A stretch of DNA of 64,000 nucleotides from Frigoriglobus tundricola (GTDB lineage: Bacteria; Planctomycetota; Planctomycetia; Gemmatales; Gemmataceae). Location of the stretch: NCBI RefSeq assembly GCF_013128195.2, contig NZ_CP053452.2, positions 8,990,001-9,054,000 on the forward strand, read 5' to 3'. The notes beneath the pieces were generated by a model, which saw nothing but the letters and a program-made list of their open reading frames with translations, was not told the origin of the DNA and did no database searches. Position 1 is the first letter of the stretch, and each line of letters begins with the position of its first letter. Of this stretch, positions 9,737 through 64,000 are shown piece by piece. Both the position numbers and the translations under genes were made by a program.

Positions 9737-10492
9737 TCAATCGCCCCGGCGGATCCAACGCGCCGGGTGAGGGGGCGGCGTGAGGGGTTCGGCTCCGTTC
9801 GGTGTGGTGGTCCCACCTCGCTCCTCGGGGTGGTCGCTGTTCTCCTGACTGCTGGCCCCGTGACTGTCTCGGAGGTCTCCTCGTTGTTCTCGCTCTCGTT
9901 TCGCTTCTTGTTCCGGCGTTCGTTCCGCGCCGTCTTCGTCAAAAGGGACGAGTAAGGCGCGGAGTTCCAACCGCGCCCGGTGCAGACGACTGCGGATCGT
10001 ACCAATTGGAACGCCCAACAGCTCTGCGATGTCCTCGTACTTCAGCCCCTCAATGTCCTTGAAAACAAGTACTTCGCGGTGTTCGGACGACAGTCGGGCG
10101 ATGGCCTCGGTCAGTTGTCGTTCGTCCTCGCTCCGTTCGAGCGCCGCGCCCGGTTTGACATACTCCGAGGGGTCGTTCGGGTCGATTCCGGTTTCACCCG
10201 ACTGTGCTTCCAAGCTGACGACCGGCCGCTTCTTACGTTTCAGGCTGATCGCGGTGTTGAACGCAATGCGGTACAGCCAGGTGAAGAACTCGGCGTCCCC
10301 CTTGAAGGCGTGTAGCGCCTGGTAGGCGCTCAGGAACGCGTCCTGAACGACATCCGCGGCATCATCGGGGCTTTGAACCAGTCGCAGCGCGGCGTTATAA
10401 AGCCTTGTCTGGTAGCGGGTTACCAATTCACCAAAGGCATCCCGTTTGCCGCCCAGACATTCCGCGATGAGCCGGCGATCGTCGTCGTTCAC
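9737..10492 (-). CDS. RpoE-like ECF sigma factor
   Basis: This 251-residue protein begins at a GTG preceded by GGAGGATC. Region 2 covers about residues 20-90 (ELVTRYQTRLYNAAL, DVVQDAFLSAY, FTWLYRIAFNTA). Region 4 covers 130-185 (LSSEHREVLVFKDIEGLKYE and GVPIGTIRSRLHRARLEL). A charged, low-complexity tail of about 60 residues after region 4 is unusual; it ends close to the next start and may be dispensable. It is a typical ECF pair with the anti-sigma gene downstream. Divergence from uvrA leaves a shared promoter region of about 270 bases. Confidence 0.9.
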   Translation of the reverse strand: MNDDDRRLIAECLGGKRDAFGELVTRYQTRLYNAALRLVQSPDDAADVVQDAFLSAYQALHAFKGDAEFFTWLYRIAFNTAISLKRKKRPVVSLEAQSGETGIDPNDPSEYVKPGAALERSEDERQLTEAIARLSSEHREVLVFKDIEGLKYEDIAELLGVPIGTIRSRLHRARLELRALLVPFDEDGAERTPEQEAKREREQRGDLRDSHGASSQENSDHPEERGGTTTPNGAEPLTPPPHPARWIRRGD

Positions 10493-24275: not shown

Positions 24276-27170
24276 ATGTTAGACCCGCGGAGAGGCACGG
24301 CCCTTTACCGCGCCGCAGAGTCGCTCGCCCGTTTGAAAGAGGCGACGAGCGACCGGGCCCTCCTCCACCGGTTCACCCGCGACCACGATCCAGCTGCATT
24401 CACCGAGTTACTCGCCCGTCACGGCCCGGCCGTTTGGGGCGTGTGCCGTCGGGTGACCCGCCACCATGCGGACGCCGAGGACGTGTTCCAGGCGACGTTT
24501 CTGGTTTTGGCGCGGCAGGCGGCGCGGGTGCAGAAAGCCGCCTCTGTCGGAAGTTGGCTCTACGGCGTCGCACTACGTATCGGCCGCAAGGTGCGGGCGA
24601 AGGGCGACCGGGTTCCGATTCCCGCTCGCCTCACGTCGCCCGCTGCGCCACTGGAGCCGCCGGTCGCCCTGAGCTGGAACGAGGTCCGTGGGGCGCTTGA
24701 TGAGGAACTCGCACGGCTCCCCGACCGCCTCCGCGCAGTCGTCTTGCTGTGCTACTTCCAGGGCATGACACAGGACGAGGCCGCGGCCGAACTGGGGTGG
24801 ACGGCGCGGACGGTCAAGGCCCGCGTCGCCCGCGCGCGGGAACTCTTGCGCGCCCGGCTCACCCGCCGCGGCATCGAGCTGTCCGCCGCCCTGGCGGTGC
24901 CGCTCCTCACTGCCGAACTCGTACCCGCAGTCCCGGGGCACCTGCTCACCGCACTCGCGGCATCGGCCGCCGGTCTGGCCCGGAGCGGCTCGCCCGGCAC
25001 GGATCTATCAGCGCGTGTGGTCGCACTCGCCCGAACGGAGGTTCCCACCGTGTCACTGTTCCGACTCGTCGTTCTGGTCACGACCGCCGCGGGCCTGCTC
25101 ACCGCCGGTTCACTCATCGGCCGTCCCGCGGACCCCGCCGCCGAACGGGATGTGCGGCTCGGCGCCGCGGCAGCCCCCCCGCCGACCGTGCCGGAGCCGA
25201 AGCTCCCTGCCACCGGCATACGCATCGGCACCAAAGAGTTCCGGCAGGTCGGGTGGCACACGCGGGTGTTCTTCACCGACGCCGGCAAGACTCTGATGAC
25301 CGCCGGCGAGCGCGGAACCGTCCGCTTCTGGGACGTGCAGCGCGGCGAAACGGTTCACGAGATCGATCTCAAGGGGAACCACCACGACGCAGCGGCCACT
25401 CCGGACGGCCGCCTCCTCGCGGTCGTGGGCTACCGATTACCCAAGGGCAATGACGACGCCGGCGGGGACGCCCTCTGGCTCATCGATGCTGTGGACCGAA
25501 AGGTTCGGCACTGCATCGGGATACCAGAGCGCTTGGGCGGCAATCATCAAAAGGTGTGTATCAGCGACGACGGCAAACGCGTGGTCGTCGAACACGAGGG
25601 GGACGTTCGGATCTTCGATACAAAATCCGGCGAGGAACTAATGCGGCACAAGGGCCGGATCAACGCCGGGACGCTCGCCTTGTCACGCGACGGCAAGCTG
25701 ATCGCGTTCGGGCGCTACGATTTGTACCTCTGGAAGTGGGACTCCGGAGAGGAACCGAAAAAATTCGTCCGTGTCGCCAGTTTTGGGGTCGAAACCGCGG
25801 GCTTTACGCCCGACGGCAAGGCCCTCCTCGCAGTGTCCTCCGGCGGCCGGGTGGCGTCGTTCGACGTTGCGACCGGGCGACAGACCGCGACGTTTGACCT
25901 CGGTGGTACGCCGTGGAAGTGGTCGTTCAATCCCGACGGGTTGGCACTCGCCATAGTTTTCATGGAATCCAGGGGTCAAGAAAGCCGTGGGGTGGTGCTG
26001 TGGGATCCGTCCACCGGCAAGGAAATCGGTCGGTTACCCGTCGGTCACTCGAATGCATCGCACGTCAGTTGGTCGGCAGACGGCACCCGGCTCGCGGCGG
26101 TCACGGACTACCGAATCTGGGCGTGGGACGTGGCGACACGGAAGCCGCTCGGCCCCTCCTCACCCGGCCACGAGGGGTACATCACCGCATTCGCTTTCGG
26201 GCCGGACGGTCAACTGTACAGTGCCAGCGACGACCACACCATCCGCTCGTGGAACCCGACCACCGGCAAGCCGGGTCAGGAACTGATTCACAAGGCCTGG
26301 GTGCGCGACCTGGCTGTCTCGGACGACGGTTCCTTGGTGGCCGGCTCGGCACTCGTCAACGACCTCCGCATCTGGGACGCCAAGAGCGGCACCGAGCGTT
26401 TCCGGCTTCTGGGTAACGGTGAAATGGGGGGCAAGCGGCGAGTACGGTTCACACCTGATGGCAAACAGCTCATCGCCTGGGGCGACGACCTCTTTCTGAG
26501 AGTGTGGGACATGAGTACCGGCAAGCTCCGTGCCGAGTACCGAACCTTGCCCGAGGGCGTGACCGAGGCCGAACTCGATGACGAGCGGTTGCTCGCCCTC
26601 AAGATGATGGGGTTCGCCCCCGTCGACATCAGTGCGGACGGCTCGACCTTCGCTTTCTGCCAGCACAAGGTCGTCCAGCTCTTCGATGTGGCCAGCGGTC
26701 GGGAGCGGTCGAAGCTCGAAGTCGATCCGAACGGGATCATCTCACTGGCCCTCTCACCGGACGGCAAGCGGATGATAGTCGGCGGGCGCGGCAAGCCGAC
26801 CGAGACGCGCCTTTCCAACGGGATGACGCGCCACTCCAGCGCCAAGCAGCACCAGACCGCCCTGTGGGACGTTGCTGCGAAGAAGGTGATCTGGGAAACG
26901 ACCTCGCCGGGTTCTTGGGCGATCCAGGTCGGGTTCTCGCCGGATGGCAAGCGGACCGCCGAGACCGTGTCGGACGAGGACGAGAAGACGCACGCGGTCC
27001 GGATCTGGGACACTGAGTCGGGGAAGGAGTTGGGCCGTATCGAATTGCCGTCGCGCGCCGGCCACTTCGCGTTCGACCGGACCGGCCAGAGGCTGGCCGT
27101 CGCCTACCAGGACACCACCGCCGCCTGCTTCGACCTGGGAACCGCACTCAAACCCGCCAACGACAAATAA
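24276..27170 (+). CDS. ECF sigma factor fused to a membrane segment and WD40 propeller
   Basis: This is a 964-residue protein. ATG 24276 follows GAGGAG. Residues 25-105 form sigma region 2 (LLHRFTRDHDPAAFTELLARH, DAEDVFQATFLVLARQ, GSWLYGVALRIGRK). Residues about 130-195 form region 4 (LPDRLRAVVLLCYFQGMTQDE, WTARTVKARVARARELL). A membrane helix near 262-285 (LVVLVTTAAGLLTAGSLI) is followed by many WD40 repeats to the end (e.g. VRFWDVQRGE, HTIRSWNPTTGK, LRIWDAKSG). Such WD40-tailed ECF factors are described in Gemmata and relatives. The sensor and sigma are on one chain, with the propeller presumably outside the membrane, so release would require cleavage or a conformational signal. It heads a three-gene operon. 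Confidence 0.92.
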   Translation: MLDPRRGTALYRAAESLARLKEATSDRALLHRFTRDHDPAAFTELLARHGPAVWGVCRRVTRHHADAEDVFQATFLVLARQAARVQKAASVGSWLYGVALRIGRKVRAKGDRVPIPARLTSPAAPLEPPVALSWNEVRGALDEELARLPDRLRAVVLLCYFQGMTQDEAAAELGWTARTVKARVARARELLRARLTRRGIELSAALAVPLLTAELVPAVPGHLLTALAASAAGLARSGSPGTDLSARVVALARTEVPTVSLFRLVVLVTTAAGLLTAGSLIGRPADPAAERDVRLGAAAAPPPTVPEPKLPATGIRIGTKEFRQVGWHTRVFFTDAGKTLMTAGERGTVRFWDVQRGETVHEIDLKGNHHDAAATPDGRLLAVVGYRLPKGNDDAGGDALWLIDAVDRKVRHCIGIPERLGGNHQKVCISDDGKRVVVEHEGDVRIFDTKSGEELMRHKGRINAGTLALSRDGKLIAFGRYDLYLWKWDSGEEPKKFVRVASFGVETAGFTPDGKALLAVSSGGRVASFDVATGRQTATFDLGGTPWKWSFNPDGLALAIVFMESRGQESRGVVLWDPSTGKEIGRLPVGHSNASHVSWSADGTRLAAVTDYRIWAWDVATRKPLGPSSPGHEGYITAFAFGPDGQLYSASDDHTIRSWNPTTGKPGQELIHKAWVRDLAVSDDGSLVAGSALVNDLRIWDAKSGTERFRLLGNGEMGGKRRVRFTPDGKQLIAWGDDLFLRVWDMSTGKLRAEYRTLPEGVTEAELDDERLLALKMMGFAPVDISADGSTFAFCQHKVVQLFDVASGRERSKLEVDPNGIISLALSPDGKRMIVGGRGKPTETRLSNGMTRHSSAKQHQTALWDVAAKKVIWETTSPGSWAIQVGFSPDGKRTAETVSDEDEKTHAVRIWDTESGKELGRIELPSRAGHFAFDRTGQRLAVAYQDTTAACFDLGTALKPANDK

Positions 27171-41852: not shown

Positions 41853-42395
41853 TCACCCTCCCTCGCTCTGGAGCCGGCGCTCGAGGCACTCCGACAACAG
41901 CCGCCTGAGGCGCAGCAGGCTCTGGCGCACATAGTTCGACGACCGACCCAGGTGGCCCGCGATCGCTCCGGGCGAGAGCTGCTCGAAGTACCGCCACCGG
42001 ATCATTTCCCGGGCCTTCGGTTGCAACTCCCCCAGACACGCTTGGAGGGCCGACAGGGTCTCGGCCCGCTCCAGATCCGTCAGCGGGCCGTCGGCCGTTT
42101 GCGCGAGTTGCAACATCAGGTCGGTCACTTCTCCGGCCAGGATCCGGCTGCGGCGGCTGTCCTTGCGCCGCTCGTTGGCGACCAGTCGGCGGGCGATCTG
42201 CACCACCCACACCCCGAACTCCCCGGCCGGGTCGAATTCGGCACGCTTCTGCCAGGCGAGAAAGAGAGCGTCTTGGGCGAAGTCGTCCACCGCTTCGGCC
42301 CGGACCCCGAGCGCGCGGATCGAGGCCCTCAGACGGGCCTGATGTTTGCGGACCTGGTCGATGAACCACGCACGCTCCTGCGCCGACAGATCCAT
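41853..42395 (-). CDS. ECF sigma factor
   Basis: This is a protein of about 180 residues. I chose ATG 42395 (MDLSAQERAW) because GAGAG precedes it by about 10 bases; the frame is open to 42446. Region 2 has RASIRALGVRAEAVDDFAQD and FGVWVVQIARRL; region 4 has QPKAREMIRWRYFEQLSPG and GRSSNYVRQSLLRLRRLL. It fits planctomycete-type short ECF factors with a FecR-domain anti-sigma downstream. The next gene is 5 bases away. Confidence 0.88.
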   Translation of the reverse strand: MDLSAQERAWFIDQVRKHQARLRASIRALGVRAEAVDDFAQDALFLAWQKRAEFDPAGEFGVWVVQIARRLVANERRKDSRRSRILAGEVTDLMLQLAQTADGPLTDLERAETLSALQACLGELQPKAREMIRWRYFEQLSPGAIAGHLGRSSNYVRQSLLRLRRLLSECLERRLQSEGG

Positions 42396-55309: not shown

Positions 55310-56752
55310 TCAAGCGTCGGTCGGGTCATCGTGCTCCGCGACCACGCGGTCCAGCACGATCCCCATCTCCCGGAGTTTGTACCGCAGGGTCGCCCGGCTG
55401 ATTCCCAACAGGTCACTGGCCTGGGCCTGGTGCCCGTGCGTGAGACGGAGGGCACGCGTCAACAGTTCCCGCTCCACCCGCCCGACCACCCGCCCGTAAA
55501 CGTTCTTTCCCCCGTCACGCAGCATCGCCTCGATCGTCCCCACAAGATCGAATGTTGTGGGCGGCAGGGCGGCCGGAGTTGCCGGAGCCGTCCCGGGCGA
55601 CGAGAACGCGGGCAGATCGTCGGGCAGTATCACCCCACCAGTGGACTGATAGGCCGCGGCGCGCACCGTGTTCTGCAACTCGCGCACGTTGCCGGGCCAG
55701 TCGAAGCGCTGGAGCCGCTCGAGTGCCTCGGGAGAGAACCCGCGGATGTCGCGCACGGCCTCTCGCGCGTAGCGGAAGAGAAAATGGTGGGCCAGTTCGG
55801 GGACGTCCGCCCGCCGGTCGCGCAGCGCCGGCACCCGAATGGTGACCACCTTGAGCCGGTAGTAAAGGTCGTTGCGGAACCGTCCGTCGGCGATCAGTTG
55901 CTCCAGATTCTGATTGGTCGCCGCGAGGACACGCACCCGCGTCGCGACCGGCTGGTTCCCGCCGATCCGCTCGAACGTCTGGTCCTGAAGGAGCCGGAGC
56001 ATCTTCGCCTGCGCGGCGAGGGGCATGTCGCCGATCTCGTCGAGCAACAGGGTGCCGTCGCCGCACTGTTCGAACTTGCCCACCCGCCGGCGGTCGGCAC
56101 CGGTGAACGCGCCCTGCTCGTGGCCGAACAGTTCGCTCTCCACCAGCGCCTCCGGGATGGCGGCGCAGTTGATCGCGAGGAACGGCCGGTCGGACCGGCG
56201 GCTGTGCGAGTAGAGCGCGCGGGCGACCAGTTCCTTACCGGTCCCGCTCTCGCCGACGATCAGCACGTTCGCGTCCTGCGGGGCGATGCGCCCGATCAGC
56301 TTGCCCATCTCCCGCATGACCTGCGAGTGCCCGATGATCCGGTCGCCAACGGGGTCGTCGGGCAGTGCGGCCGGCTCGTGCATCAGCCGGGCGGCCTCGA
56401 ACGCGCGGCCCAGGAGGCCGCTCATGTGCTCCAGATCGAGCGGCTTCGTGAGGTAGTCGAAGGCCCCGCGCTTCATGGCCTCGATCGTCGTCTCCATCGT
56501 GCCGTGCGCCGTGAGGAAGACGACCGGTCGTTTGGGGTCGGCCGCGCGCACGCGCTCGAACAGCTCCAGCCCGCTGCCGTCGGGAAGTTGGAGGTCCAGA
56601 ACGATCACGTCCGGCCGGTCGCGCTCGACCCGGCGCCACCCCTCGGCCACCGTCCCCGCCGTAATCACCTCGACCTCGGGCGTGGAGAACACGCGGCGGA
56701 ACGAGTGGCAGATGATCGATTCGTCGTCAACGAGCAGCAGCTTCGGCACCAC
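55310..56752 (-). CDS. Sigma-54-dependent response regulator (NtrC type), second
   Basis: This is a protein of about 480 residues. GTG 56752 is chosen because it starts the receiver (VVPKLLLVDDESIICHS); the frame extends further only inside the upstream kinase. The phospho-Asp is in VIVLDLQLPDG. The AAA+ domain has GESGTGKELVARAL, the GAFTGA loop (QGAFTGADRR), the Walker B DGTLLLDEIGD and sensor residues. A Fis-type helix-turn-helix ends the protein (SDLLGISRATLRYKLREMG). It overlaps the histidine kinase gene by 26 bases, indicating one operon. It is distinct from the kdp-linked regulator. Confidence 0.93.
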   Translation of the reverse strand: MVPKLLLVDDESIICHSFRRVFSTPEVEVITAGTVAEGWRRVERDRPDVIVLDLQLPDGSGLELFERVRAADPKRPVVFLTAHGTMETTIEAMKRGAFDYLTKPLDLEHMSGLLGRAFEAARLMHEPAALPDDPVGDRIIGHSQVMREMGKLIGRIAPQDANVLIVGESGTGKELVARALYSHSRRSDRPFLAINCAAIPEALVESELFGHEQGAFTGADRRRVGKFEQCGDGTLLLDEIGDMPLAAQAKMLRLLQDQTFERIGGNQPVATRVRVLAATNQNLEQLIADGRFRNDLYYRLKVVTIRVPALRDRRADVPELAHHFLFRYAREAVRDIRGFSPEALERLQRFDWPGNVRELQNTVRAAAYQSTGGVILPDDLPAFSSPGTAPATPAALPPTTFDLVGTIEAMLRDGGKNVYGRVVGRVERELLTRALRLTHGHQAQASDLLGISRATLRYKLREMGIVLDRVVAEHDDPTDA

Positions 56753-58220
56753 GCGCCTCCGTCGTGGGGAGTGTGAGCAGGAACGCGGCCCCGCCGGCCT
56801 CGCGGTTGGCGGCCGTGAGGGCGCCACCGTGGTCCGTTGCGACGCGACGGGCGACCGTCAGACCGAGCCCCGTACCGGTCGGCTTGGTGGTGACGAACGG
56901 CGTGAACAGGCGGTCGGCCATGTTCGGATCGATGCCCGGACCGGTGTCGGCCACTTCCACGGTTAGTGTACCGTTCGGAGTGGCACGCGTGCGAACGAAG
57001 ACGCTCCCTCGTGGCGGCGTGGCATCGACCGCGTTGAACAGCAGGTTCGTCAGGAGCGAGAGCATCTGGTCGCGATCAACTGTCACCGCGATCGGGGCCG
57101 GGGGCGTATCGACCGTGAGCGAGACGGCCTTGGCGTCGGCGCGGCCGCGGGCGATCCCGACGGCCTCGGTGACTAACTGGCCCAGGTCGTGCGGGCGGCG
57201 ATCCAGGGGCGGCCGGCGCGCGAAATCGAGCAGCCCCTGCACCGTCCGCTCGATCCGCACCACCTCGGTTCGGATCAGCCGTAAATCTTCTCCCGTCAGC
57301 GGGACCGGGTTCGTGGTCCGCAGCGCGCCCTCGATCAGGAATTTGATCCCGGTGAGCGGGTTGCGCACCTCATGTGCCACCCCGGCCGCGAGGTGCCCGA
57401 CCGCGGCCAACTGTTCAGCCCGAAGTAGATCCCGTTCTTGCTCCTGAAGCCGCTGGCACACGTCTTTCACGCGCCCGACGACCCGGTCGAGTTCCGCGTC
57501 GAGATCCCCAAGGCGGGCCGGCCCTTCGACGGTCAACGCGCCCACATCCTGATCCAGATGAGCTTGGACCGCCCGGACCCGGACGGACAGTTGGGCGGCC
57601 CGACGGGTCAGCCCGCGGGCGGTGGCGTAACCGGTGAGGACGCCCCCGAAGGCACCGACGAGCCCGAACGCGAAGAGCAACCGGCCCGCCCAGGTGGTTT
57701 GGGCGTCACTTCTCAAAACGCTCTGGGCCATCCGGTCGCTTTGCCTGTCGGCCAGCTCACGACACGGCTGGAGGAGCCCCTGAACCGGGTGCGCGTCGGC
57801 CCAGTGGATCAGATCGCGGCCCGTCAGCCCGGTGGTCGCAACGGCACGGGTGACCAGTGAGGCCTCGTATTCTTGGTAGGCGTCATCGATAACCGCGAGC
57901 AGGCGGAGGTCGTCTCCGGCGTCGCACTCCCGCCGGACGTCTTCGAGTGCCGCCAGCACAAGCTCCCGGTCATCGGCCATGACGCGCTTGCGGGAACCGG
58001 ACGGGTCGGCGGCGACCATCAGGGAGTGGAACCGGAGCTGCCGGAGCCGGATCTGGAGCTCGCCCGCGGCCCGCATCCGGGCGGCATCGTGGCGCACCGC
58101 ACGAGCCAGGTCCGCCTGGAGCCGGTTGATGTACCACGTACTCGTCAGGCACGCGATCGCGACGAACCCGCCCAGAGTCATGTACGGGACCGAGTGCCGG
58201 GCGAACAGGAACGGATTCAT
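56727..58220 (-). CDS. NtrB-like membrane histidine kinase
   Basis: This is a 497-residue protein from ATG 58220, with GAGGTGGG upstream. It has membrane helices near 12-31 and about 178-200 (RLLFAFGLVGAFGGVLTGYA), enclosing a helical sensing region. A linker/HAMP-like segment follows, then HisKA with GVAHEVRNPLTGIKFLIEGA and HATPase (LLTNLLFNAVDATPPRG, EVADTGPGIDPNM, GTGLGLTVARRVATDHGG). The phospho-acceptor His lies about residue 284. It pairs with the overlapping NtrC-type regulator. Confidence 0.93.
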   Translation of the reverse strand: MNPFLFARHSVPYMTLGGFVAIACLTSTWYINRLQADLARAVRHDAARMRAAGELQIRLRQLRFHSLMVAADPSGSRKRVMADDRELVLAALEDVRRECDAGDDLRLLAVIDDAYQEYEASLVTRAVATTGLTGRDLIHWADAHPVQGLLQPCRELADRQSDRMAQSVLRSDAQTTWAGRLLFAFGLVGAFGGVLTGYATARGLTRRAAQLSVRVRAVQAHLDQDVGALTVEGPARLGDLDAELDRVVGRVKDVCQRLQEQERDLLRAEQLAAVGHLAAGVAHEVRNPLTGIKFLIEGALRTTNPVPLTGEDLRLIRTEVVRIERTVQGLLDFARRPPLDRRPHDLGQLVTEAVGIARGRADAKAVSLTVDTPPAPIAVTVDRDQMLSLLTNLLFNAVDATPPRGSVFVRTRATPNGTLTVEVADTGPGIDPNMADRLFTPFVTTKPTGTGLGLTVARRVATDHGGALTAANREAGGAAFLLTLPTTEARGAEAAAR

Positions 58221-58473
58221 CGTCCCACCTCACTGAGCAAACGGGCGGCGCGTCCGTCAGGGCGCTCAATTTATGGTAGCCGTCGCGCCCGCCGTGAGGC
58301 ACGGCGGGCGAAACTTCCTCTCGGGACGGAACGCTGCGACCATGCTCGGGAGCGACCCGTCCCGCGCGGAGATTTTCTTTTCCAATCCGGGCGCGCGGTG
58401 TCAACTAAGAAGCGAACGCGGACGCGATCCGTTCACGACCCGGAATTCGACACGCTCAATGAGGGTTCCGTTC

Positions 58474-59067
58474 ATGGCAGTGAATGCCGACCTGGGGTCG
58501 GCTTCGCCCTCGGCACCGCCGGACGAAGCCGTCCCCCCGCCCCCGGACAAGAACAAGGTGTTCCTCCGCCTCTTTCTCCAGAACGAGCGGCGGTTGTACG
58601 CCTACATCTTCGCGCTGCTCCCGAACCGGGCGGACGCGGACGACGTGCTCCAGGAAACGAGCATGACGATGTGGGACCGCTTCGACGCGGACGCGCCCCC
58701 GACCGAATTCGTCGCCTGGGGCAAACGGATCGCGTACCACAAGGTACTCGATTTTTACAAGAAGTCGCAGCGCGCCCAGGCCCGACTGAGTCTCATATTC
58801 CTCAAACGAATCGCCGAAACCGCGGCCGGGCAGGCTGACGAATTGCAGCTCGACGCCCGCCGCGACGCGCTGACCGAGTGCGTCGAAAAGCTCCCGGCGC
58901 GTGACCGCGAACTCCTGACCCATCGGTTCGCCGACGGCGCCACCACGCAATCCGCTTCACAACAACTCGGCCGCTCCGTGGACGCCGTTTACAAGGCGCT
59001 GGCCAAACTCCGCGAAGCGCTGTTCCAGTGCGTTCAAAACACACTCACACGGGAGGGCCACGCGTGA
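58474..59067 (+). CDS. ECF sigma factor overlapping the alpha-2-macroglobulin gene
   Basis: This is a protein of about 197 residues. ATG 58474 follows GAGGG by 8 bases; the frame is open to 58273. Region 2 has FLQNERRLYAYIFALLPN, ADDVLQETSMTMWDRFD and FVAWGKRIAYHKV; region 4 has LPARDRELLTHRFADGATT and LGRSVDAVYKALAKLREAL. Its stop TGA overlaps the GTG of the next gene (GTGA), the usual arrangement for a sigma and its anti-sigma. The region upstream is shared with the divergent histidine kinase. Confidence 0.9.
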   Translation: MAVNADLGSASPSAPPDEAVPPPPDKNKVFLRLFLQNERRLYAYIFALLPNRADADDVLQETSMTMWDRFDADAPPTEFVAWGKRIAYHKVLDFYKKSQRAQARLSLIFLKRIAETAAGQADELQLDARRDALTECVEKLPARDRELLTHRFADGATTQSASQQLGRSVDAVYKALAKLREALFQCVQNTLTREGHA

Positions 59068-62000
59068 CCCCCGCTTCACCGGTCATCACCGAGCTGCAAC
59101 CGCTTCTCGACGCCCTGGCGGAAGAGAACATCACCCCGGACCAACTCCGGCGACTGGAAGAACTCGTTCTCATGCACCCCGAGGCCGAGGCGCACTACAT
59201 TCGGTTCATGAGCTTCTGCGCCGATCTGATCGGCCACGTTGCCGGATTACCCGAACCGAAACAGGTCGCAACGACCGCCCTTCCCCCGATCGCGCCAACT
59301 CAGGACCCGCCGCACCCTCGCCTCGAACCGGCTCGCCCCTCGCCCGTGGCCCCTCGAGCCGACAGGAGGACGAGCCGCGCGCGCAAGCTGATCGCGTGGC
59401 TGCTCGTGGCCGGGACGGTCAGCAGCGTGATCGGGTCGCAGCTCTATACCTGGCGCGAACGCGCACGGACGGTTCGCGATGCGGAAGTCGCTGTGGCGAC
59501 AGCCCAGCGCGAACTTGCCCGTGTGAAAGCCGCACAGGATGCCGCTCTGGAGGAAAGTCGCAAGCCCGTCGAAGCCGCGCTCGTCGCGGAACGCGAACTC
59601 CTCGAGCGGTATCGTGCGGCGCAAACGAGTGCCCGCAAGGCGATCGAGGAAAAGGACTTCGTCGTCCGCCTCACCGGCCCGGAACACGTTCAGCCCGGCG
59701 CTCCGAACAAGTGGCAGATCGAAACGCTCCGCCACGGGGCCATCGGCCGGCCTCAGAAGCTGGATGTCGTCGTCAAGGACGCGAAAGATACCGAACTCCT
59801 GCGCCAGACGCACGAGAAGCCCGTCGGCGCGGCCACACTCGAACTCACGGCCGCGTTCTGGGAGAAGGTGAAACCAGGCTCCGACCTGTTCCTCGAAGTC
59901 GTGGCGCACACCGAGGATCGCAAGAGCGTGTTGGCCGAGCGGCTGCCGCTCGCGCGGCCAGTGTATGTGACGCACCTCGTCACCGACAAGCCGCTGTACA
60001 AGCCCGGCGAAACGGTGCGCTTCCGCTCGCTCACCCTCGACCGCAGCAGCCTGCGTCCGCCGGAACACGACCTTCACCTGATCTTCAAACTCCGCGATCC
60101 GAGCGACACCGTCGTTCCGCTCGACGAGGGGAACGGCCGGTTGCTCCGCGCCCTCCAACCGGTCGTGGACGCCAATCGCAAGCACATTCGCGGCATCGGC
60201 GTCGGTGAGTACGCACTCAGCGCGGACGCCCCTGGCGGCGAATACAAGCTCGACCTCTTCGAGAAACTAGCCGGCACCGGCAAAGAAGTGCTACTCGAAA
60301 CGCGCAAGTTCATCGTGAACAGGTACGTCCCGGACACCTTCGAGAAGAAGCTCGAATTCGACGGCAAGAGCTACGGCCCGGGCGAAACCGTCCAGGCCCG
60401 GATCGAGGTCTCGCGGACCGCCGGCGGGCCGATGAAAAACGCGAAGGCCACCGTCGTCGCCTCAACGGTACGAACGATCTTGTACGAGCAGAAGGACGCG
60501 AAATTCACCACCCTGACCAGCGGCGGAGTCACAAAGACCTTTCTAAACGTGCGATTCGTGCTGCCCCCGAGCATCTTCGAGAAGGCCCCATCGAACGCGC
60601 CACCGTCCGCGACTCTGAGCGTGAACATTCAGGACGGGAGCGATACTGAAGCCATCGTTAGGCCGATTCCGCTCGTGTCGAAGACCCTCGGCATCGGGTT
60701 CTTCCCCGAGGGCGGCGAGATGATCGCCGGCGTGCCCGGCCGCGTGTACTTCATGGTCCGGATGCCCATCGTGGGGGGTTCGAAACCCGCCGACCTGAAG
60801 GGCTATATCACCGACGGCACGAACACCATCACCGAAGTCAGCACGCTCACGGACGCCGAAAACCCCGGCGTGAACCGCGGGCACGGCGCCTTCACACTCA
60901 CGCCGAAGGCCGGCACAAAATACTTCCTCAAGCTTCTGACGCCGATTGGAATCACGGAACCGACTCGGGACGGGTTCCCACTTCCCGTCGCGAAGGCGGA
61001 TGGCGTCGCGCTCACGGCCCTTGACGCCGTGACCGAACGGGGCGGCGCGATCCGCGTGCGGTTGCAAACCGCGCAGGGACCGAAGACGTTGCACGTCGGG
61101 GCGTATGTTCGCGAGCGACTCGTCGCGCAACAGAAGGTCGAACTGGAAGCGAACAAGCCCGTCGAGGTCTCCCTCAAGGGAGACGAGCCGGCGGGCGGCG
61201 TGACGCGCGTGACCGTGTTCGAGGAACGGAAGGGCGATGCCCCCGACCTGACGGCTCTCACTCCACGGGCGGAGCGACTCGTGTTCCGGGGATCGGCTGA
61301 ACACCTCGTCCTGAAGGCGAACCCGGACAAGACTCGGTATTCGCCGTCCGACCGGGTGCGGCTCGATCTGTCCGCGGTCACGGAGAGCGGCGCGCCGACG
61401 CCCGCCGTGCTGCTCGTCGGCGTGGTGAACCGCAGTGTGATCACGATGGCCGACAATAAGAACGATCGGTTGCTACCGACACACTTCCTCCTTTCGGGCG
61501 AGGTGAAGAACTCGGCGGAACTGGAACACGCCGACTTCCTGCTAACGGACCACCCGAAGGCCGGCGTCGCGCTCGATCTGCTCCTGGGCACGCAAGGCTG
61601 GCGCCGGTTCGCTGAGCAGGACATCGCCCCGTCGAACCCGACCGACCGACCAGACGTGGACAAGATGCTCGTCGCCCACGGTCAGCGCCCCACCGCACCG
61701 CTGGAGTTGTTCAAGCTCGAAGAGCAGCGCCTCAGAGCTGAATTCCAGCCACAACTGGAGCAGGCGCGGCTGCGCAGTGCGGCCAAGGAGGCCCAGTGGA
61801 ATGCGATACCCGCCGCACGGCTCGCTCAGATGATGAATGTGCAAACGGCCGTTTCTGTCGCCACGGCTCAAGTGAGAGACGCACGGGAGGCACTAGACGA
61901 CTTCGAGGAGCGCTACGAGCAGCTCGTTCCGTCACTCCCTTCGCTGCTGGCCTTCCTGGCGGTTCTGGGTACCCTCACCCTCCTCTTCATGGTCATGCGA

Positions 62001-64000
62001 GAGGCAACCGCCACCAAACCAGCCGGAAAGGGGCGCCCGTACATCGCAGGTGCGGGCGCGCTGATCGTCTGTGGTCTGCTGGCCGTGACGATGAAGAATA
62101 TGGGGACTAACGCGAACAGCACCTTCTCTTTTGTGGGGAGTTCGATCAAACCACCGGGTTCAAGGAGTCGAGGTGCGGTTGATGAGCGTCCGGACATGGC
62201 AGTGGCGGGGAGCATAAGAAACGAGGGTATCGATCGGTCCGGGAGTATGCCCGCCCCCACGGAACCACCCAGCTTCCCCCGCGTCCCGTCCGGCCCGCCG
62301 GCAGCGCCTCCCAAAGCACCAACTCGTAACGTGGAGGGAAAGAGCGTAGCCAACGGGCTACCGGGCAACACGAAGGACGCGCGCTCGAACCGAAGCGCCC
62401 CATCGGTCAGCAATCGGTCCGACCTGGGAGCCGAAAAGACCCGCGTAGCTTCCGCGTTCAACCCAAATCAGATCCCTGAAGCGTTGAAGGGACACGGTTT
62501 GGCGAGGGGAATGTACTCGACTATTGAGTCGCTCACCGCGCCCTTCGTCGTACGCGAGTACGCCCACCAGCGCGACCCGGCACTCGGCGAGGTCCGTTCG
62601 GACTTCACCGAAACGGTGTACTGGCACCCGGTTCTTGTGATGCCCGCGACCGGTCAGGCGACCGTCGAGTTTCAGCTCTCCGACGACATCGCCCGGTATC
62701 AGGTTCTCGTTGCGGGACACACGACCGATGGTCGCATCGGTGCCATCACGACAACGATCGAAGCCCGCAAGCCGTTCAGCATTGATCCGAAGTTGCCCCT
62801 GGAAATCGCGCACACGGACACCATCGACGCACCCATCCGCGTGACCAACGATAGCAACGTGCGGCGTAACGTGGCGTTCACCGCAACGCCGAACGGCCTC
62901 AAGACCACCGGCCTGTTGCAAGACGTGATTGACCTCGAACCGAACGGCAAGGGCCGCAAGATTCTTCGTCTCAACGCGGACAAGCTCGAAGGTGAAGCGA
63001 GCCTTTCCATCGAGGGCACGAGCATCCCAGCTGAGAAGGACGCGATCTTCCGCACGATCCGCATTGTCCCCGATGGCTTCCCCGGCGTCGGGTCGTTCAG
63101 CGACATGCTGGAGAACGGCCGCGCTCGCGGCGGGATCACATTACCGAAGGATGTGGTTCCGGGTTCACTCCAGGTCCGGCTCGAAGTCTACCCCACCTCG
63201 ATGGCCGATCTCGTGAAGGGGCTGGACGGCCTCTTGCGCGAGCCGTCCGGGTGCTTCGAGCAGACCTCGACCACGAACTACCCGAACACGCTGATCCTCG
63301 ACTACATGAACCAGACCAACCAGGTGAACCCCGGGGCCGCGAAGCGCGCGAAGGAGTTGCTGGCACGCGGCTACGGACGGCTGACCTCGTTCGAATGCCC
63401 CGACACGCCGCTGGCGACGAGGCAGGGTTTTGAGTGGTTCGGCGCGGCCGACCGCCAGCACGAAGCGCTCACCGCCTACGGACTGCTCCAGTTCAAGGAC
63501 ATGAGCCGCGTTCACCCGGTCGACCCGCAACTCATTAAACGGACACAGGGGTTCCTGCTGTCCCGCAAAGATGGGACCGGCGGGTTTAAACGAAATGCGC
63601 GGGCACTGGACGGATTCGGCGGCGCACCGAAACACACGACCGACGTCTACATCGTTTGGGCTCTTGTTGAGAGCGACCCGGACGACACCGAACGGCTCGA
63701 TCTCAAAACCGAAATTGCGTCACTCAAAGCCGAAGCGCTCAACGCGAACTCGGTTGGCGGCAGGGATGCCTACTTCGTCGCGCTCGTCGCGAACGTCGTG
63801 CTCCAGCGCGGCGACCGCGAAACCGCCCATAAGCTGCTCGATCGCCTGAAGGACAAGCACGTCAAAGCGGGCGCCGTTACGGGGGCCGTCACGAGCATCA
63901 CCCGCTCCGGTGGCCGCGATCTGGAGATCGAAACCACCGCTCTCGCGCTTCTCGGATGGCTGCGAGCGAACGACCCGAGCTACGCGCTGACCATTAAAGC
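59064..64000 (+). CDS. Anti-sigma-like domain fused to a thioester alpha-2-macroglobulin (3' end outside window)
   Basis: At least 1645 codons from GTG 59064 without a stop. GGAGGG precedes the start. Residues 1-60 (TELQPLLDALAEENITPDQL, LEELVLMHPEAEAHYIRFM) match the helical N-terminal region of planctomycete FecR-type anti-sigma factors. A membrane helix follows at 109-128, then a coiled coil and MG-type beta domains (DKPLYKPGETVRFRSLTLD). Two further helices lie near 955-1010. Then DFTETVYWHPVLVMPATG and the thioester GCFEQ (Cys1397, Gln1400), with a helical thioester-domain tail. Alpha-2-macroglobulins trap proteases when a bait region is cut. The overlap with the sigma gene suggests that cleavage or binding could be signalled to transcription; this link is inference. 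Confidence 0.85.
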   Translation, partial: MTPASPVITELQPLLDALAEENITPDQLRRLEELVLMHPEAEAHYIRFMSFCADLIGHVAGLPEPKQVATTALPPIAPTQDPPHPRLEPARPSPVAPRADRRTSRARKLIAWLLVAGTVSSVIGSQLYTWRERARTVRDAEVAVATAQRELARVKAAQDAALEESRKPVEAALVAERELLERYRAAQTSARKAIEEKDFVVRLTGPEHVQPGAPNKWQIETLRHGAIGRPQKLDVVVKDAKDTELLRQTHEKPVGAATLELTAAFWEKVKPGSDLFLEVVAHTEDRKSVLAERLPLARPVYVTHLVTDKPLYKPGETVRFRSLTLDRSSLRPPEHDLHLIFKLRDPSDTVVPLDEGNGRLLRALQPVVDANRKHIRGIGVGEYALSADAPGGEYKLDLFEKLAGTGKEVLLETRKFIVNRYVPDTFEKKLEFDGKSYGPGETVQARIEVSRTAGGPMKNAKATVVASTVRTILYEQKDAKFTTLTSGGVTKTFLNVRFVLPPSIFEKAPSNAPPSATLSVNIQDGSDTEAIVRPIPLVSKTLGIGFFPEGGEMIAGVPGRVYFMVRMPIVGGSKPADLKGYITDGTNTITEVSTLTDAENPGVNRGHGAFTLTPKAGTKYFLKLLTPIGITEPTRDGFPLPVAKADGVALTALDAVTERGGAIRVRLQTAQGPKTLHVGAYVRERLVAQQKVELEANKPVEVSLKGDEPAGGVTRVTVFEERKGDAPDLTALTPRAERLVFRGSAEHLVLKANPDKTRYSPSDRVRLDLSAVTESGAPTPAVLLVGVVNRSVITMADNKNDRLLPTHFLLSGEVKNSAELEHADFLLTDHPKAGVALDLLLGTQGWRRFAEQDIAPSNPTDRPDVDKMLVAHGQRPTAPLELFKLEEQRLRAEFQPQLEQARLRSAAKEAQWNAIPAARLAQMMNVQTAVSVATAQVRDAREALDDFEERYEQLVPSLPSLLAFLAVLGTLTLLFMVMREATATKPAGKGRPYIAGAGALIVCGLLAVTMKNMGTNANSTFSFVGSSIKPPGSRSRGAVDERPDMAVAGSIRNEGIDRSGSMPAPTEPPSFPRVPSGPPAAPPKAPTRNVEGKSVANGLPGNTKDARSNRSAPSVSNRSDLGAEKTRVASAFNPNQIPEALKGHGLARGMYSTIESLTAPFVVREYAHQRDPALGEVRSDFTETVYWHPVLVMPATGQATVEFQLSDDIARYQVLVAGHTTDGRIGAITTTIEARKPFSIDPKLPLEIAHTDTIDAPIRVTNDSNVRRNVAFTATPNGLKTTGLLQDVIDLEPNGKGRKILRLNADKLEGEASLSIEGTSIPAEKDAIFRTIRIVPDGFPGVGSFSDMLENGRARGGITLPKDVVPGSLQVRLEVYPTSMADLVKGLDGLLREPSGCFEQTSTTNYPNTLILDYMNQTNQVNPGAAKRAKELLARGYGRLTSFECPDTPLATRQGFEWFGAADRQHEALTAYGLLQFKDMSRVHPVDPQLIKRTQGFLLSRKDGTGGFKRNARALDGFGGAPKHTTDVYIVWALVESDPDDTERLDLKTEIASLKAEALNANSVGGRDAYFVALVANVVLQRGDRETAHKLLDRLKDKHVKAGAVTGAVTSITRSGGRDLEIETTALALLGWLRANDPSYALTIK

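What the first reader, a model, noticed from the sequence alone, without database searches (positions are those of the whole stretch)
58474..64000. ECF sigma gene overlapping an anti-sigma/alpha-2-macroglobulin fusion
The GTGA overlap ties a sigma factor to a giant protein whose N-terminus resembles an anti-sigma domain, followed by a membrane helix and a thioester macroglobulin (GCFEQ). Macroglobulins change shape when proteases cut their bait. A protein that is both trap and sigma anchor could report protease attack directly to RNA polymerase. I do not know this fusion as a described system.
Basis: inference. Interest (0 to 1): 0.75.

Follow-up and report, generated by a model that had tools for sequence, protein, structure and literature searches.

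The report
Protease trap wired to its sigma
In this planctomycete bacterium a complement-like protease trap carries, on its inner end, the kind of domain that holds a gene switch in check, and the switch's one clear promoter is the one that makes more switch and more trap; in relatives the switch, its holder and the promoter are swapped or lost together.

Summary
A sigma gene (58474-59067) overlaps by GTGA a 1,899-aa macroglobulin gene (59064 to 64763, 763 bases past the window). Its N-terminus matches a profile of 32 partners of related sigmas (34.9 bits; best of 2,000 shuffles 6.0). Predicted order: three-helix domain, membrane helix, C3-like ring, membrane hairpin, disordered linker at the bait position, thioester domain with GCFEQ.

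The fusion is an old planctomycete family. Of 72 loci read, 62 have a sigma upstream; nine without the N-terminal domain also lack the sigma, one is unreadable. Most others use a zinc-finger anti-sigma and another sigma clade. On the window's branch sigma, anti-sigma domain and promoter were all exchanged. The promoter motif occurs once in each of the 10 of 95 family genomes that hold this sigma, and in none of the other 85.

Most likely: a membrane-held protease trap that keeps a private sigma silent and restocks itself when spent. Binding, direction of regulation and protease triggering are inferred. Relatives with sigma but no thioester domain, and with thioester domain but no sigma, show that sensing and trapping are separable.

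The parts
58380..58409 (+). Putative own promoter TTCCAAT-N13-GTCAACTAAG (-35/-10 roles inferred)
   Evidence: Aligned in 9 of 10 window-type loci, found 1.35 kb upstream in the tenth; once in each of 10 genomes that hold this sigma, 0 of 85 others; 0 in 100 window shuffles
58474..59067 (+). ECF sigma factor, TIGR02989, 197 aa
   Evidence: 136.6 bits, cut-off 124.55
59064..59067 (+). GTGA overlap: start of the macroglobulin gene and stop of the sigma gene
59064..64000 (+). Anti-sigma/macroglobulin fusion gene, continues to 64763 (1,899 aa)
59064..59243 (+). Anti-sigma domain, residues 1-60, predicted three-helix bundle
   Evidence: profile match 34.9 bits; hhalign 97% with partners of TIGR02989-type sigmas; helices 6-19, 25-37, 39-59
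59388..59444 (+). Membrane helix 1, residues 109-127, basic residues before it
   Evidence: hydropathy 1.69; one long helix 120-196 follows in the model
59661..61343 (+). Macroglobulin ring, residues 200-760
   Evidence: Foldseek best match complement C3, E 3.2e-20, TMq 0.41
61941..62093 (+). Membrane hairpin, residues 960-978 and 992-1010, basic loop between
   Evidence: hydropathy 2.39 and 1.87; both helices over threshold in 37 of 43 full-length relatives, one only in 6
62100..62555 (+). Disordered Ser/Pro/Ala-rich linker, residues 1013-1164, at the bait position
   Evidence: pLDDT under 50; lies directly before the block aligned with human A2M
63249..63263 (+). Thioester motif GCFEQ in the TED domain
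   Evidence: present in 39 of 43 full-length relatives

Best explanation
A one-operon sense-and-restock device. The macroglobulin is a membrane-anchored, thioester-bearing protease trap on the outer face; its cytoplasmic N-terminus is an anti-sigma domain that holds the co-made ECF sigma. When the trap is cut in its disordered linker, or otherwise changes shape, the sigma is let go and reads essentially one promoter, its own, making more sigma and more trap; fresh trap refills the stock and silences the sigma again. Shown by sequence and prediction: gene overlap, families of sigma and anti-sigma domain, membrane segments, macroglobulin and thioester domains, joint loss and joint exchange of sigma and anti-sigma domain, and a promoter motif found once per genome and only with this sigma. 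Inferred: physical binding, direction of regulation, that cleavage is the signal, how it crosses the membrane, and that weaker promoters elsewhere do not matter.
For: N-terminal profile match, hhalign and three-helix prediction. Sigma present in 62 of 72 loci and absent from the nine that lack the domain, with at least 3 changes on the tree. Sigma tree and NCBIfam show that the window-type sigma is of another clade than that of the other macroglobulins. Motif and sigma coincide in the same 10 of 95 genomes. Ring like C3, C-terminal part like native A2ML1, Z 34.9, rmsd 6.2, 714 residues, disordered linker at the bait position, GCFEQ.
Against: No binding or activity data. Four of 43 full-length relatives keep sigma without the thioester domain; seven sigma-less paralogues read in full keep the thioester, so the two functions part easily. 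A2M_BRD is under its cut-off. At one mismatch G000 has three further motif sites, and the strict motif was derived from the sigma's own promoter, so degenerate targets could be missed.
Confidence: 0.5

Rival explanations
1. The macroglobulin ring is an envelope or ligand sensor. The protein is a membrane anti-sigma factor whose large outer part senses something other than proteolysis; sigma is freed by a membrane protease cascade as for RseA, and the thioester serves covalent attachment to surfaces, as in C3, rather than trapping.
For: Thioester-less relatives keep anti-sigma domain, membrane segments and sigma. The same anti-sigma domain sits on FecR-like and PSCyt2/PSD1 proteins elsewhere. 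The ring resembles C3/C5.
Against: The one clear promoter makes the macroglobulin itself, which fits a consumable better than a pure sensor; GCFEQ is kept in 39 of 43.
Confidence: 0.33
2. The sigma only drives its own operon and the N-terminal domain acts as a FecR-like partner needed for sigma activity rather than as an inhibitor.
For: Two of five scanned partner proteins with this N-terminal domain match FecR, one of them over its cut-off; FecR of E. coli needs its N-terminus for sigma activity (PMC7406223, passages).
Against: The macroglobulin itself has no FecR match; the predicted three-helix form and the zinc-finger domains of relatives are of the class I anti-sigma kind.
Confidence: 0.12
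3. The sigma neighbour and the N-terminal likeness are chance or hitch-hiking.
For: No curated family over its cut-off names the N-terminus.
Against: Profile match, joint losses, joint exchange and matching promoter distribution.
Confidence: 0.03

Closest known systems
Membrane-anchored class I anti-sigma factors with ECF sigmas (RseA/RpoE, RsiW/SigW, RskA/SigK)
   Same: Cytoplasmic helical anti-sigma domain, membrane helix, outer sensor part, sigma co-encoded and probably self-regulated (PMC7406223 and PMC8103513, passages)
   Different: The outer part is a whole macroglobulin with thioester domain; a membrane hairpin lies inside the protein; the clear promoter is only its own
TIGR02989 (Rhodopirellula/Verrucomicrobium) sigmas and their partners in planctomycetes
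   Same: Sigma family and the N-terminal domain of the partner
   Different: Partners scanned carry FecR, PSCyt2/PSD1 or no named domain (5 of 32 scanned), not a macroglobulin
Type I bacterial alpha-2-macroglobulin (ECAM/YfhM)
   Same: Macroglobulin domains, disordered region at the bait position, CXEQ thioester, anchored in the inner membrane (PMC4498604, passages)
   Different: Anti-sigma N-terminus and sigma neighbour instead of a secreted N-terminus; hairpin at the bait position
Pseudomonas MagD (type II alpha-2-macroglobulin)
   Same: Macroglobulin working with co-encoded membrane partners; traps without a thioester (PMC5764988, passages)
   Different: No sigma or anti-sigma part appears in the passages read

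Membership tests
ECF sigma, TIGR02989 | Score over the family's cut-off | tested here: met
   136.6 bits against 124.55; 10 of 10 window-type sigmas match, best E 1.1e-42. The 52 other sigmas also match at E 1e-10 or better, but weaker (best 3.5e-19) than other models
ECF sigma, TIGR02989 | Co-encoded partner with the shared N-terminal domain | tested here: met
Class I anti-sigma factor | N-terminal helical bundle, three helices plus a fourth | tested here: inconclusive
   Three helices predicted with high confidence; residues 61-121 disordered, a fourth binding helix not identified
Class I anti-sigma factor | Binds and inhibits its sigma | not testable with these tools
   needs a binding and activity assay
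Class I anti-sigma factor | Hx3Cx2C zinc motif (in about half of that class) | tested here: not met
   Absent in the window's protein; not a defining feature (PMC7406223 passages). Present in 39 of 47 relatives outside the window's clade
Type I alpha-2-macroglobulin | Macroglobulin ring and TED fold | tested here: met
Type I alpha-2-macroglobulin | CXEQ thioester motif | tested here: met
   GCFEQ
Type I alpha-2-macroglobulin | Disordered bait region | tested here: inconclusive
   Disordered linker at the right place, but A2M_BRD under its cut-off and cleavage untested
Type I alpha-2-macroglobulin | Traps proteases | not testable with these tools
   needs biochemistry
E. coli-type A2M operon | Secreted N-terminus | tested here: not met
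   The N-terminus is the anti-sigma-type domain
E. coli-type A2M operon | PBP1c neighbour | not tested
   Downstream ORFs were listed but not scanned for it
FecR | FecR domain (PF04773) | tested here: not met
   No match at E 1 in the part of the protein within the window, residues 2-1645

The most novel reading that the evidence does not exclude
A self-restocking mousetrap: cleavage of a complement-like, membrane-hairpinned thioester trap releases a private sigma whose only promoter rebuilds the trap. A protease-immunity circuit written in two overlapping genes, whose sigma/anti-sigma/promoter cassette was exchanged as one unit in evolution.
Probability: 0.38. Interest if true: 0.9.

Novelty: new variant of a known kind. 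Interest (0 to 1): 0.75.

Why it matters
A conserved anti-sigma/macroglobulin fusion with a dedicated, self-directed sigma would join innate-immunity-like protease trapping to transcription in one protein, and would make the question of what bacterial macroglobulins respond to testable with a one-promoter reporter. It also offers a clear natural case in which sigma, anti-sigma domain and promoter were replaced on a kept sensor, and in which sigma and anti-sigma domain were lost together several times, useful for work on how sigma/anti-sigma pairs co-evolve.

Tried and rejected
Rejected: that the link is chance. Rejected: that the histidine-kinase gene upstream (56727-58220) belongs to the system; phmmer found no homologue in the 13 related loci searched. 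Rejected: that the window-type domain drifted from the older zinc type; hhalign gives 97% with the partners of TIGR02989-type sigmas, 10% with the zincless and 0.3% with the zinc domains of the family. Rejected for want of evidence: plasmid carriage; no match of 58474-60000 in 72,556 plasmid records.

Led nowhere: a relaxed form of the motif near the 32 other TIGR02989-type sigmas gave 0; the main ECF classification paper is not held; the two extra exact sites of the short motif, in G005 and G112, have no AAG extension and no sigma or macroglobulin ORF beside them.

Limits of the counts. The 72 loci are L004, L005 and 70 places that I chose from the long list (that list was itself cut); split second halves, cut contigs and most weak, shorter relatives were left out. 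L069 gave no readable N-terminus. L098, with a shifted frame, was put among 'other'; both were left out of the Fisher test (61 and 9 loci, p 1.5e-11), which ignores relatedness. The macroglobulin tree has 70 rows, without L053 and L069, and is rooted at its midpoint, so 'older' rests on that root. The sigma tree is quick, with SH-aLRT only and a warning that long branches meet. In one search eight of the nine domain-less paralogues were tested (L053 gave no sequence), and two of the 32 partner loci (L108, L109) belong to sigmas under the TIGR02989 cut-off. The second promoter motif was found and counted on the same 52 regions: the best dyad there reached 35, the best in three shuffled sets 5 to 8. 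The 20 places outside the family were chosen by me, anti-sigma likeness there was judged by eye, and L241 has only some 240 bases upstream.

Full report
What is there. The window is part of a 9.86-Mb genome; the best named match to its macroglobulin in the genome collection is from Gemmata sp. IIL30 (69% identity). An ECF sigma gene (58474-59067) overlaps by four bases the start of a macroglobulin gene (59064 to 64763 in window numbering). The sigma is of family TIGR02989, over its cut-off. The large protein has MG2, A2M and TED domains over their cut-offs and the thioester motif GCFEQ.

The N-terminus is of an anti-sigma kind. No curated family over its cut-off names it. I therefore took the genes next to 32 other TIGR02989-type sigmas: 29 loci from 59 planctomycete genomes and three of this genome, two of these under the family's cut-off. 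None lies at a macroglobulin locus of this family. A profile of their first 78 residues finds all 10 macroglobulin N-termini of the window's type at E 1.8e-13 to 1e-9 (database size set to 1,000); the window scores 34.9 bits, the best of 2,000 shuffles 6.0, and none of eight domain-less paralogues is over the inclusion threshold. Four zincless relatives also match, more weakly (E 5e-5 to 6e-3), in keeping with a shared fold. The structure prediction gives three helices at residues 6-59, the form described for class I anti-sigma domains (PMC7406223, passages); the fourth helix described there was not identified.

The outer part. Residues 200-760 resemble the C3 and C5 beta chains (Foldseek E 3.2e-20, TMq 0.41, rmsd 11.5 over 612 columns). 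Residues 700-1899 match native A2ML1 (Z 34.9, rmsd 6.2, 714 residues) and native A2M (Z 33.8, rmsd 6.5, 723 residues); that model has mean pLDDT 71.7. A membrane hairpin (960-978 and 992-1010) and then a disordered linker (1013-1164) lie directly before the block that aligns with human A2M. In human A2M the bait region lies just before that block (recalled), so hairpin and linker sit at the bait position. Basic residues before the first membrane helix and between the hairpin helices fit a topology with anti-sigma domain and hairpin loop inside, ring and linker outside (inference).

The family. Of 95 Gemmataceae genomes 88 hold a relative at E 1e-10. In 72 loci that I read a sigma lies upstream on the same strand in 62. 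Nine loci without the anti-sigma domain have no sigma in the 883 or more bases held upstream; the tenth sigma-less locus (L069) has no readable N-terminus. Outside the window's clade the N-terminal domains are mostly zinc-finger anti-sigma domains: zf-HC2 matched 35 of 47 at E 0.01 and 39 of 47 have HxxxCxxC. In a sample of 294 genomes of the phylum 39 had a relative, G000 included. Of 20 such places that I read, 10 have a sigma beside an anti-sigma-like N-terminus, 2 have such an N-terminus at a contig end, and 8 have neither.

Exchange and loss. On the midpoint-rooted macroglobulin tree zincless forms branch off before one clade (18 rows, support 100/100) that holds all 10 window-type proteins and 8 domain-less ones; the domain-less state needs at least 3 changes. 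On the sigma tree the 52 sigmas of the other macroglobulins form one clade (SH-aLRT 98), and the 10 of the window type form another (100) inside the TIGR02989-type sigmas. NCBIfam agrees in strength though not in exclusiveness: TIGR02989 matches 10 of 10 window-type sigmas (best E 1.1e-42, next family 2.7e-21) and also 52 of 52 others, but there at best 3.5e-19 while other models reach 2.9e-29. So on one branch sigma and anti-sigma domain were exchanged while the macroglobulin stayed.

Promoter. Upstream of the window-type sigmas nine of ten loci align on TTCCAAT-N12/13-GTCAACT. In the tenth, G002, the motif lies some 1.35 kb upstream, with two ORFs between that look by eye like IS3-type transposase genes. 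Across 95 family genomes the motif with its NAG extension occurs once in each of 10 genomes and in none of 85; the sigma orthologue (E at most 1e-50) occurs once in each of the same 10 and in none of 85. With up to two mismatches in the 17-base form each of 8 such genomes has one site, its own, and 5 other genomes none; the backward control pattern had 7 chance hits in the 13 genomes. With one mismatch in the shorter form four of five genomes have one site, while G000 has four (its own, one single site and an inverted pair), and two control genomes none. The other sigma clade has another motif, CAATC-N16/18-CGTC, in 34 of 52 upstream regions (shuffled regions: mean 0.13, maximum 2 in 1,000 trials) and in 0 of 10 window-type regions. 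Promoter, sigma and anti-sigma domain thus changed on the same branch.

How it most likely works. If the sigma reads essentially its own operon, the only product besides sigma is the macroglobulin, so the answer to the signal is more trap. That logic, the linker at the bait position and the thioester make protease attack the most economical signal. It is not shown. Four of 43 full-length relatives lack the thioester domain but keep the sigma, and the seven sigma-less paralogues read in full keep GCFEQ (two of the nine were not fetched in full), so sensing and trapping are separable modules.

Novelty. Searches of the held library for macroglobulin with anti-sigma (3 papers, none on this by title and abstract start), with planctomycetes (10 papers; passages of one read, not this), with bacterial macroglobulin terms and for planctomycetes with ECF and anti-sigma terms showed no description of such a fusion. 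Passages of five further papers were read; none was read whole. The library holds only open-licence papers and lacks the main ECF classification paper, so the pairing may be listed in data that I could not see. I rate it a new variant of a known kind: an ECF sigma/anti-sigma pair with a macroglobulin as its outer part.

Noticed in passing
L098 (G000:C1:2611000-2620231): This genome's own thioester-less relative has a zinc-type anti-sigma domain in another frame than the macroglobulin part, and a second frame change near its C-terminus: decayed gene or sequencing error.
   Followed up: partly
L208 1501-2881 (G002): Two transposase-like ORFs (IS3 type by eye) separate the promoter motif from the sigma gene by about 1.35 kb in this one genome.
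   Followed up: partly
window 41883-42365 (-), 24396-24851 (+), 9959-10438 (-): Three further ECF sigma matches in the window; the second lies in an open frame of 1,031 aa. The genome gave 150 matches to TIGR02989 at E 0.001, the number that the search scored.
   Followed up: no
L152, L160: The same type of anti-sigma N-terminus is fused to PSCyt2/PSD1 proteins next to TIGR02989 sigmas: the domain seems to be a portable plug on varied outer proteins.
   Followed up: partly
L099, L201, L202, L203: Thioester-less macroglobulins of 1,343-1,453 aa that end soon after the first A2M block but keep anti-sigma domain, membrane segments and upstream sigma.
   Followed up: partly
L038, L040: Two sigma-less relatives carry another, unidentified N-terminal stretch (beginning MSTDKP) before the membrane helix.
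   Followed up: no
G000:C1:5940006-5940105: An inverted pair of one-mismatch promoter-like sites in this genome, function unknown.
   Followed up: no
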